IMG/VR virus record: IMGVR_UViG_3300020147_000026
Location: 1 to 23,468 of that record
Reading direction: 5' to 3' (one strand)
DNA from: a virus
DNA length: 23,468 nucleotides
In this document: piece after piece, positions 263-2,761 of the stretch
Layout: each line of letters begins with the position of its first letter
Position numbering within the stretch: the stretch's first letter is position 1
Translations under genes and position numbers: made by a program
Notes under the pieces: model-generated
What the model was told of the DNA's origin: nothing
Database searches by the model: none
What the model saw: the letters and a program-made list of their open reading frames with translations, nothing else

Positions 263-348
263 TGGTGCGTTAGGTAGGATTCGAACCTACTCACCCAGAG
301 GGAACAGATTTACAGTCTGCCGCAACTCTCCAACTTTGCCGCTAACGC
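263..348 (-). tRNA. tRNA-Tyr (anticodon GUA)
   Basis: A complete class II tRNA with encoded CCA. The acceptor stem GCGTTAG pairs fully with CTAACGC, followed by discriminator A and CCA. The D stem is GCAA/TTGC. The anticodon stem GCAGA/TCTGT holds loop CTGTAAA, giving anticodon GTA. A long variable arm and the T arm GTAGG-TTCGAAT-CCTAC follow. The long variable arm is what bacterial tRNA-Tyr has. It lies just downstream of the large structured RNA on the same strand, so RNase P cutting at its 5' end could release that RNA. Confidence 0.95.
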
Positions 349-778
349 ATTAAAACTTATACGCTCTCTGTTCTTTTTCAAGAATAAGTTGTACCGGAAG
401 ACAACCTAACAGATATAATCTATAGAGACGTATAAATTCTAAATTAAATGTTCATAAGGTTGAGACTACACTTATGAGTTAGCGCTTCAAGCATTATTGC
501 TACCCTTGCGAGGTAACTTTCTCTTGACGTCCACTAGACCTCTTGCGAGTATTCTAGTACGCTAACAACACCGCAGTTTTAAGTCATGCAATAGACTTGA
601 CATATGGTATTACTCTGTATCTTCATTTCCGTCTACCTTGCGGGCAGTTCGAGTTGGCAGCTCTACGAACTTTCTAATACAAACTAAATCATCCTTGCGA
701 GAATCATTAGACTCAGTTAACCGAAGTTCTGAGTATTAGGTGTCTTTCATACCATATCGGAACAGACTTTGCTTTTTA

Positions 779-862
779 ATCGATGGTTGGATTTGAACCA
801 ACTGCCGACTCCTTAAAATGGAGTTGCTCTACCAAATGAGCTACATGTGAACCTACCTCGAT
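779..862 (-). ncRNA. tRNA-Lys(UUU)-like fold embedded in the large RNA
   Basis: The D arm (GCTC...GAGC with the GGT-A loop), the anticodon arm (ACTCC/GGAGT, loop ATTTTAA, anticodon TTT) and the T arm (GTTGG-TTCAAAT-CCAAC) are all normal. The acceptor stem is not. The seven bases next to the D arm (TCACATG) do not pair with the 3' strand CATCGAT. A partner, ATCGAGG (6 of 7 pairs), lies 12 bases further out at 856-862. No CCA is encoded. Outside this, GGAACAG (minus strand, 866-872) pairs perfectly with CTGTTCC (759-765). The fold therefore looks like a domain of the large RNA rather than a free tRNA, though a decayed or oddly processed tRNA-Lys is possible. Confidence 0.7.
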
Positions 863-1402
863 GTGCTGTTCCTGTTGTTTCATATTCTTTTGGAATACAA
901 AATGCAACACACCGAATACCTTTTACCTGTCGGTTACTCAGTCATATTTCACGATATCTGTCTAATCTTTTTGGGATTATCCAGTAACCGTTAATATTGC
1001 ATATAAGCTCTAGACTACAACATCTCGAACCTATATACTACCCTTTCTCATACAAACTAACTGGTTGGTTTTGTTGTGAAGTCAGCACCACCTGTTACTT
1101 TCCTTTGACACTGTTTGTCCAGCTTCAAAAGCCGGCAGTAAGCCAAAGTTCTTTCCACAACACCAGCGTCATTCTTACCTCCACCAGTCTTATTAGTGAA
1201 GGAATCCTCGCGGATTTGAGCAGGCTTGCATAAATGGACTATTACTAGCGCTGGTATGTAGGCATTCCAGCTTTGGCCCTATCACTAGGGTTATCCTATT
1301 GAGATTATGCTCCCAATTTCTCAAACTCAATCAGGGGAGAGAGTTAAGGAATAAAAGGTGTCTATTCCAGGGGAATAAAAAGAATAGACACATAAATCAG
1401 TT

Positions 1403-1433
1403 TGGTTAATAAGTATGGATTCGAACCATAACC
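1403..1433 (-). ncRNA. T-loop hairpin followed by CCA, no matching tRNA 5' half
   Basis: On the minus strand TATGG-TTCGAAT-CCATA is a perfect tRNA T arm. It is followed by seven bases (CTTATTA), an A and CCA, exactly as at a tRNA 3' end. The 70-90 bases upstream contain no matching acceptor strand (TAATAAG would be needed), no D arm and no seven-base anticodon loop. They form a long hairpin around 1444-1482 instead. GGT/ACC at the edges can also pair. I read it as a T-loop element of the large RNA. Confidence 0.5.
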
Positions 1434-1719
1434 TCCGTTCCGTTTCTACACTTTGAATCGCTAAATTCTTCAGTGTATAATCCGGACTCAGTGTGCTTTC
1501 CTATACACTACTTAAAATACTGAATAGTCGGTTAGCGCCGAGTCTCCAGTACCCAAATTCGAAAGTTTTATCTGGGTTAGACTAATTTTCTGCTTGATTC
1601 GTATGAATCTCGATGCAGTTCCTGGCTTCCAACCAGGCGGTGGTTTATATGGTCAGGGTTGGAAGATAACCAATTTAGCTCACGCCTTTAACTCTCGTTA
1701 TATAAAATTAATCTAACTT

Positions 1720-1785
1720 AGATAAAACTTTAGTTCACCTTGGTTATACCCTTAGTTTTATAACCAAGGTGAACAAATTTTATCT
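1720..1785 (-). repeat. long hairpin, 16-bp perfect stem with imperfect extension
   Basis: The arms 1733-1748 and 1759-1774 are perfect reverse complements with a 10-base loop. The pairing continues with small defects through 1720-1732 and 1775-1785 to nearly 28 pairs. It lies just downstream, in minus-strand sense, of the 13-bp helix that closes the first domain of the large RNA. It could be a peripheral helix of that RNA or a processing site. It lacks a good U tract on either strand, so I do not call it a terminator. Confidence 0.7.
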
Positions 1786-2216
1786 GTAAAGGACACTAAG
1801 CCTATCCACGTCGTAACCTCAACCGAGATTGCAATCTCACCGGTATGTTCGTGCATACATAACGCGATACTTTATACTGCATATCCGTAGCGGCTTTTTC
1901 GGTAGCGTTAATTCAAGTCAGTCTTGGTTGTCCCAGTTTCATTCGTTGAATTAACCTAATTTATTAATGGGTCTATTTACGATTTAAATCCACCATGTCG
2001 TCAGGACCTGCGCGGTCAACGCGTATAGTGGTATAGGTTTCGTTTATAGTGTCCTTTACTATTGCTACTACATCAGTAGCTTGTCTATTTTACTTGATTA
2101 GGTGTTTGCCTAATCTTTCATCCAGAACCCCGCTATTTTTATACTTTTACTGTGTATCGGCAGAAGCGTCGCCAAACAGTTACTTCAAAGAGCGTTTACT
2201 GCTAAACTATTTGATA

Positions 2217-2245
2217 ATTATATATCAATAAGAATTAAAAGTAAA
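2217..2245 (-). promoter_or_regulatory. early-type promoter, array copy 1 (nearest the RNA)
   Basis: The -35 TTTACT (2240-2245) and perfect -10 TATAAT (2217-2222) are separated by 17 bases. This matches host-sigma70 promoters and the GTTTACT-type -35 typical of T4 early promoters. The predicted start, near 2210, marks the 5' end of the structured RNA. Confidence 0.8.
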
Positions 2246-2292: not shown

Positions 2293-2321
2293 ATTATATA
2301 TTAATAAAAATTAAATGTAAA
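2293..2321 (-). promoter_or_regulatory. early-type promoter, array copy 2
   Basis: The -35 TTTACA (2316-2321), 17-base spacer and -10 TATAAT (2293-2298) lie exactly 76 bases upstream of copy 1. The sequence around it is a diverged direct repeat of the copy 1 surroundings, about 75 bases per unit. Confidence 0.8.
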
Positions 2322-2367: not shown

Positions 2368-2396
2368 ATTATAAACAGTTTATAGATTAAAGTAAA
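2368..2396 (-). promoter_or_regulatory. early-type promoter, array copy 3
   Basis: The -35 TTTACT within GTTTACTT (2391-2396), 17-base spacer and -10 TATAAT (2368-2373) lie 75 bases upstream of copy 2. Its -35 sits right after the terminator at 2405-2434, so the array is insulated from upstream transcription. Confidence 0.75.
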
Positions 2397-2404
2397 CAGT
2401 AGAG

Positions 2405-2434
2405 TAAAAAAAACCTCTAACTAAGTAGAGGTTG
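2405..2434 (-). terminator. intrinsic terminator before the promoter array
   Basis: On the minus strand AACCTCTA (2426-2433) pairs with TAGAGGTT (2412-2419), and a run of eight T follows at once. The left arm can instead pair with an upstream copy at 2458-2468 over 11 bp (see the attenuator entry). Confidence 0.85.
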
Positions 2435-2689: not shown

Positions 2690-2761
2690 TTACTTATTCA
2701 TCACATACATCGTAACTTCAAAGCCAAATCTCATTTCAGTTGCTGTAGGTTTCGTCCACAT
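2690..2761 (-). CDS. pqqA: PqqA, ribosomally made precursor peptide of the cofactor PQQ
   Basis: A 23-residue peptide that starts MWTKP and contains GFEVTMY, the PqqA signature. In PqqA the Glu and Tyr of E-x3-Y (here Glu15 and Tyr19) are joined by the radical-SAM enzyme PqqE, with PqqD as peptide chaperone, and become the body of pyrroloquinoline quinone. Both residues and the spacing are kept, and the length is what the family has. A perfect AAGGAG lies six bases before the ATG at 2761 and a terminator follows, so it looks like a working gene with its own short transcript. No pqqB, C, D or E gene is in the window, so it would depend on the host's enzymes. It was overlooked by length-limited ORF calling. 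The function in infection is inferred. Confidence 0.92.
   Translation of the reverse strand: MWTKPTATEMRFGFEVTMYVMNK

What the first reader, a model, noticed from the sequence alone, without database searches (positions are those of the whole stretch)
350..2210. A 1.86-kb giant structured RNA, possibly a new or divergent GOLLD/ROOL-class phage RNA
The region between the promoter array and tRNA-Tyr has no credible protein gene but is almost fully paired on the minus strand. It has many GNRA tetraloops of different sequence (GUGA, GUAA, GCGA, GAAA, GCAA), a UUCG loop, T-loop elements and long-range helices such as the 13-bp one at 2047-2059/1786-1798. Established knowledge: giant RNAs GOLLD and ROOL occur in phages, often next to tRNAs, and are reported to assemble into RNA cages. 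The resemblance in size and setting is inference, and this one is longer than either.
Basis: partly seen in the sequence, partly recalled or inferred. Interest (0 to 1): 0.93.

Follow-up and report, generated by a model that had tools for sequence, protein, structure and literature searches.

The report
GOLLD cage RNA with tRNA-like insert
A marine T4-like phage carries an ordinary-sized (879-nt) GOLLD RNA, a known kind of RNA that assembles into hollow cages, with a disabled tRNA-like domain in the loop expected to lie inside the cage, preceded by about 0.8 kb of further non-coding RNA that includes a small, apparently undescribed tRNA-like RNA.

Summary
The minus strand of 350-2210 is non-coding, but it is not one 1.86-kb RNA.

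Window 1335-457 is a full-length GOLLD RNA of 879 nt. Rfam RF02032 matches the 3' domain at 224 bits. The 5' domain, which Rfam does not model, matches relatives I collected; 74 of its 87 consensus pairs show compensatory changes. Comparable, essentially full-length GOLLDs are 831-904 nt, so this one is typical.

A tRNA-Lys(UUU)-like domain (846-783) sits in the linker reported to face the cage lumen. Linker tRNAs are known. New here: they look systematically acceptor-defective. None of 24 pairs all seven acceptor positions and 2 of 24 have CCA, against 250 and 279 of 292 free tRNAs in the same loci. In Caulobacter phages the domain is identical except for a five-base block in the anticodon loop.

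Upstream, three tandem promoters precede about 0.8 kb with no Rfam match. Its 3' part (1567-1402) belongs to an apparently undescribed pseudoknotted, T-arm-bearing RNA, also found in GOLLD/tRNA-array phages (four distinct sequences, 9 of 16 P2 pairs with compensatory changes). The rest (1568-2210) is an orphan.

Function is inferred: a cage presenting an uncharged anticodon decoy, with modest confidence.

The parts
2412..2433 (-). intrinsic-terminator-like hairpin with T8, closing the upstream (regA-side) unit
2368..2396 (-). tandem sigma70-like promoter 1 (TTTACT-N17-TATAAT)
   Evidence: consensus match, not tested for function
2293..2321 (-). tandem promoter 2 (TTTACA-N17-TATAAT)
2217..2245 (-). 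tandem promoter 3 (TTTACT-N17-TATAAT); start site inferred near 2210
1568..2210 (-). orphan non-coding stretch: domain closed by the 13-bp helix 2047-2059/1786-1798, then a 16-bp perfect hairpin at 1733-1774
   Evidence: no homolog, no Rfam match, structure from single-sequence folding only
1402..1567 (-). T-arm pseudoknotted RNA: P2 of 16 positions (1538-1553/1516-1531), apical loop CGCUAA (1532-1537), complementary strand UUAGCG (1459-1464), T-arm (1414-1430), closing helix UUUGG/CCAAA
1358..1391 (-). 10-bp spacer hairpin between the T-arm RNA and GOLLD
   Evidence: sequence
916..1335 (-). GOLLD 5' domain
457..915 (-). GOLLD 3' domain (Rfam RF02032)
783..846 (-). tRNA-Lys(UUU)-like domain in the GOLLD linker; 3 of 7 acceptor positions pair, no CCA
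263..348 (-). tRNA-Tyr (GUA), free tRNA downstream of GOLLD

Best explanation
Shown: 1335-457 minus is a canonical 879-nt GOLLD RNA in a T4-like marine phage, with a tRNA-Lys-like domain in its linker; 1567-1402 is a separate small T-arm/pseudoknot RNA. Inferred: all are made on one transcript from three tandem early promoters at 2396-2217, which runs into tRNA-Tyr, and are then processed. Inferred from the published structure of another GOLLD: fourteen copies assemble into a hollow cage and the linker lies in the lumen. Inferred from the comparative data here: the linker domain is a tRNA body that can no longer be charged or matured normally, kept for its shape and its exchangeable anticodon loop. 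The most likely role is a caged decoy or trap for tRNA-binding host factors, such as anticodon nucleases. My estimates: GOLLD identity 0.97; separate T-arm RNA 0.85; cage assembly 0.75; decoy role 0.25. The confidence below is for identity, layout and cage together, not for the decoy role.
For: Rfam GOLLD 224 bits over the full model. 5' domain found in eight distinct loci from the window sequence alone and in about 30 loci with a profile; 74 of 87 pairs with compensatory change in 21 sequences. Linker tRNA-like: 0 of 24 have 7/7 acceptor pairs and 2 of 24 CCA, against 250 and 279 of 292 free tRNAs (Fisher 1e-18 and 9e-23). Eight Caulobacter phages: the 71-nt domain varies only at five adjacent anticodon-loop positions, Lys CUU or Gly UCC. 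L182/L183: one of seven differences falls in the anticodon. 14-mer cage with the linker inside, tRNAs sometimes in the linker, rise on lysis: PMC12286853.
Against: No transcript data exist for this phage. Cage assembly of this sequence is untested. GOLLD was dispensable in one Lactobacillus prophage (stated in PMC7567579). Three of 24 linker tRNA-likes have 8-nt anticodon loops and not all GOLLDs carry one, which speaks against a universal anticodon-decoy role. The Caulobacter anticodon swap may be a single recombination event.
Confidence: 0.7

Rival explanations
1. The whole 2210-457 transcript is one extended GOLLD of about 1.75 kb whose extra 0.8 kb forms an enlarged 5' cap.
For: No internal terminator on the minus strand between 2210 and 457 and no strong internal minus-strand promoter; the upstream part folds better than shuffles.
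Against: All comparable GOLLDs are 831-904 nt. Homology to other GOLLDs stops at about 1335. The 1567-1402 RNA occurs in other phages apart from GOLLD, between tRNA-Tyr and tRNA-Ala. Many relatives have a tRNA close upstream of GOLLD instead.
Confidence: 0.12
2. The linker element is a real phage tRNA gene that is cut out of GOLLD and used in translation.
For: T-arm, D-arm and often the anticodon arm are intact; Caulobacter phage records annotate it as tRNA-Lys or tRNA-Gly.
Against: Acceptor stem imperfect in 24 of 24, no encoded CCA in 22 of 24, 8-nt anticodon loops in three. In the window only 3 of 7 acceptor positions pair.
Confidence: 0.12
3. The linker domain is only a relic of tRNA insertion, tolerated because the linker is free to vary; it has no role.
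For: The linker is described as variable and disordered; sequence and identity of the insert vary widely.
Against: Present in most loci of this class with T-arm and D-arm kept while the acceptor stem is lost; within Caulobacter phages all change is confined to the anticodon loop.
Confidence: 0.3
4. The orphan stretch 1568-2210 is unstructured leader or decayed tRNA/ncRNA sequence rather than a functional RNA.
For: No homolog; minus-strand z not lower than plus; no excess of GNRA loops.
Against: Long perfect 13-bp and 16-bp helices; 11-mer inverted repeats occur in only 11 of 300 shuffles; it starts at the predicted transcription start.
Confidence: 0.4

Closest known systems
GOLLD RNA (Rfam RF02032; cryo-EM of env-38, PMC12286853)
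   Same: 3' domain above the gathering score, covarying 5' domain, variable linker with optional tRNA, phage location next to a tRNA gene, length about 0.88 kb
   Different: lies behind about 0.8 kb of other non-coding RNA; acceptor-defective tRNA-Lys-like linker; host phage is a T4-like marine myovirus
ROOL RNA
   Same: large phage RNA often near tRNA genes, forms a cage
   Different: no sequence/structure match to ROOL in the region at E up to 5
GOLLD of Caulobacter phages phiCbK, Magneto, Karma, Swift, Ccr5, Ccr29, RBC57, S2L (linker annotated as tRNA-Lys or tRNA-Gly)
   Same: same 3' domain and same position of an acceptor-defective, CCA-less tRNA-like
   Different: 5' domain only partly alike; not T4-like
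T4 species 1 and 2 RNAs (rnaC, rnaD)
   Same: small stable RNAs in a phage tRNA cluster; rnaC ends in a T-arm
   Different: no significant sequence similarity to the 1567-1402 RNA; the CGCUAA loop is absent

Membership tests
GOLLD (RF02032) | covariance-model score above gathering over the conserved 3' domain | tested here: met
   224 bits against 150, model 1-416 of 416
GOLLD (RF02032) | structured 5' domain of about 400 nt supported by covariation | tested here: met
   1335-916; 74 of 87 pairs with compensatory change in 21 sequences
GOLLD (RF02032) | variable linker after the first 3'-domain stem, sometimes holding a tRNA | tested here: met
   tRNA-Lys-like 846-783
GOLLD (RF02032) | phage or prophage, often by tRNA genes | tested here: met
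   T4-like gene set, tRNA-Tyr 109 nt downstream
GOLLD (RF02032) | assembly into a 14-mer cage | not testable with these tools
   published for env-38 only
GOLLD (RF02032) | expression rises during phage lysis | not testable with these tools
   only promoter-like sequences seen
ROOL | match to the Rfam ROOL model | tested here: not met
   no hit at E up to 5 in 200-2700
functional tRNA (linker element 783-846) | 7-bp acceptor stem and CCA end | tested here: not met
   3 of 7 acceptor positions, tail TAAAAA
tmRNA (1567-1402 element) | ARAGORN or Rfam tmRNA match | tested here: not met
T4 rnaC/rnaD (1567-1402 element) | sequence similarity | tested here: not met
   local alignment scores 23 and 17; no dedicated shuffle test was run, but chance scores for this region against other sequences were about 30

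The most novel reading that the evidence does not exclude
GOLLD cages of this class display a tRNA-like domain that cannot be charged, with an exchangeable anticodon loop, as a decoy for host tRNA-cutting defence enzymes; and the same transcript carries a second, undescribed pseudoknotted T-arm RNA found so far only in GOLLD- or tRNA-array phages.
Probability: 0.22. Interest if true: 0.85.

Novelty: new variant of a known kind. Interest (0 to 1): 0.5.

Why it matters
GOLLD has a solved cage structure but no function. The systematic loss of acceptor stem and CCA in its linker tRNA-likes, with an anticodon loop that can be swapped, turns the published idea of a cage carrying tRNAs into a narrower and testable one. 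It also suggests that such elements annotated as phage tRNA genes (as in phiCbK) should not be counted as tRNAs. The T-arm RNA at 1567-1402 is a candidate new family.

Tried and rejected
A duplicated GOLLD 5' or 3' domain upstream: profiles hit only 1335-457 and local alignment was at shuffle level. ROOL, tmRNA, introns: no Rfam or ARAGORN hit. A spliced tRNA-Leu at 1403-1517 was proposed by ARAGORN's intron mode, with two acceptor mismatches and a 20-nt loop insert; rejected in favour of the T-arm RNA once homologs were found. Homologs of 1568-2210: none among phage records, the loci fetched or Rfam; the upstream RNA of L191/L185/L225/L233 looked alike (closing helix then long hairpin) but its profile does not match. 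regA-flanking gaps in related phages hold small genes, not this RNA. Genome-wide pattern scan for the T-arm RNA: the hits that passed the structural filter were ordinary tRNAs. T4 rnaC/rnaD as relatives: no notable similarity. Folding energy as sole evidence for the upstream part: rejected because coding controls reach z -3.9 and the plus strand scores as low.

Full report
What the window is. The contig is a fragment of a T4-like myovirus: regA, gp62/44/45 clamp genes, CobS-like ATPase, SbcCD-like, gp55-like sigma factor, UvsW/UvsY, gp23 and others. Its gp23 is closest among phage records to pelagiphage HTVC008M, Melnitz and cyanophages at 55-60% identity. The RNA region follows regA and small genes on the same (minus) strand.

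The observation. No minus-strand ORF of 60 aa or more lies in 350-2210. A terminator-like hairpin at 2433-2412 is followed by three tandem TTTAC(A/T)-N17-TATAAT promoters, the last ending at 2217, so a transcript start near 2210 is likely (inference). Folding is stronger than in shuffles, but for the upstream part the plus strand does as well and some coding controls reach z -3.9, so energy alone does not settle it. GNRA loops are in excess only in the GOLLD part.

GOLLD. Rfam RF02032 matches 915-457 minus over its full length, 224 bits, E 1.4e-62. That model corresponds to the 3' region of the RNA; [quoted passage not shown] Searching with the window sequence, I found the 5' domain from about 1330 to 920 in eight distinct viral loci, best E 9e-33. 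Further pattern scans and a profile gave about 30 loci with both domains. The window's GOLLD is 879 nt. Leaving out three truncated or partial matches (L021, L213, L219), the other loci span 831-904 nt. RNAalifold on 21 5' domains predicts 87 pairs, 74 with at least one compensatory change. This is a normal GOLLD, not a longer class.

The linker tRNA. The GOLLD alignment places a tRNA-Lys(UUU)-like domain (846-783) in the variable linker. In the solved structure this linker lies inside the cage, and tRNAs are reported to occur there sometimes. Anchoring on the T-arm, only 3 of 7 acceptor positions pair in the window and no CCA follows. Across the class, ARAGORN-detected linker tRNAs show 0 of 24 with a full acceptor stem and 2 of 24 with CCA; free tRNAs in the same loci, scored the same way, show 250 and 279 of 292 (Fisher 1e-18 and 9e-23). 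The first acceptor bases coincide with the conserved flank GGUU, which may explain the defect. In cultured Caulobacter phages the same element is annotated as tRNA-Lys or tRNA-Gly; it too has 5 of 7 acceptor pairs and no CCA. In eight such phages the 71-nt domain is identical except for five adjacent anticodon-loop positions (CUU to UCC); in L182 against L183 one of seven differences over 880 nt is in the anticodon. These are few events, but they point to the anticodon loop as the part that changes.

The upstream 0.8 kb. A weak local alignment to L191 (score 50; 0 of 150 shuffles reach it) led to a shared architecture at 1567-1402: a hairpin of 16 positions with apical loop CGCUAA, a complementary strand UUAGCG 64-67 nt downstream, then a T-arm starting 34-36 nt further on, and a closing helix. 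The same element lies between tRNA-Tyr and tRNA-Ala in L225/L227/L228 and L233, and next to tRNA-Tyr in L191. A descriptor without a fixed loop, run over 2.5 Mb, found these, the window and three chance hits. Hairpin of at least 4 bp plus strand at that spacing occurs in 0 of 30,000 shuffles of the upstream region; note that the descriptor was set after the alignment was seen. On four distinct sequences, 9 of 16 P2 pairs have changes on both sides, and sliding the partner by one column drops pairing from 93% to 43-46%. No Rfam family matches. I regard this as a real, apparently undescribed RNA, seen so far in few phages. The remaining stretch 1568-2210 has no homolog and is unresolved.

How it may work. 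Shown: sequence, structure conservation, defects of the linker tRNA, layout. Inferred: one transcript, processing into parts, cage assembly as published for env-38, linker in the lumen. The decoy role is a further inference: phage tRNAs are proposed to counter host tRNA-cutting defences (PMC10264068), and a caged tRNA body that cannot be charged but keeps an exchangeable anticodon loop would suit a decoy or trap. Against it, some linker tRNA-likes have malformed anticodon loops and GOLLD was dispensable in one prophage. I put this role at about 0.25.

Novelty. The GOLLD is a new member of a known family. The systematic acceptor defect, the anticodon-loop-only variation and the T-arm RNA were not found in the papers I could read; the 2020 GOLLD paper on mycobacteria was not held and the original 2009 description did not appear in the searches, so this is not a full priority check.

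Noticed in passing
L191:9753-10279; L185:1-706; L225, L227, L228, L233: Another conserved structured RNA directly upstream of GOLLD in phages with very large tRNA arrays, no Rfam match, with an insertable domain closed by a covarying helix. In L225/L227/L228 nearly all of GOLLD is gone but this RNA remains.
   Followed up: partly
L185:100-235, L233 and L225 at the matching place: A 42-43 aa basic ORF with a Shine-Dalgarno-like site sits inside that RNA region in L185, L233 and L225 and is absent from L191.
   Followed up: no
L185 about 505-690 against L191:10225-10270: The 19-bp hairpin of L191 has its two arms about 150 nt apart in L185, with a tRNA-like (anticodon CUA by ARAGORN) in between.
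   Followed up: no
L235:1409-1547 (T4 rnaC): T4 species 1 RNA has a hairpin loop CGUCAA and a separate strand UUGACG that could pair with it, plus a 3' T-arm; the strand order is reversed relative to the 1567-1402 RNA.
   Followed up: partly
window 2690-2761, minus: Small ORF MWTKPTATEMRFGFEVTMYVMNK downstream of regA, resembling PqqA from memory; a near-identical peptide follows regA in related phages (L040, L048 and others).
   Followed up: no
L315-L316, L319-L324 (Caulobacter phages): Database records annotate the GOLLD linker element as a tRNA gene although it lacks a full acceptor stem and CCA.
   Followed up: yes
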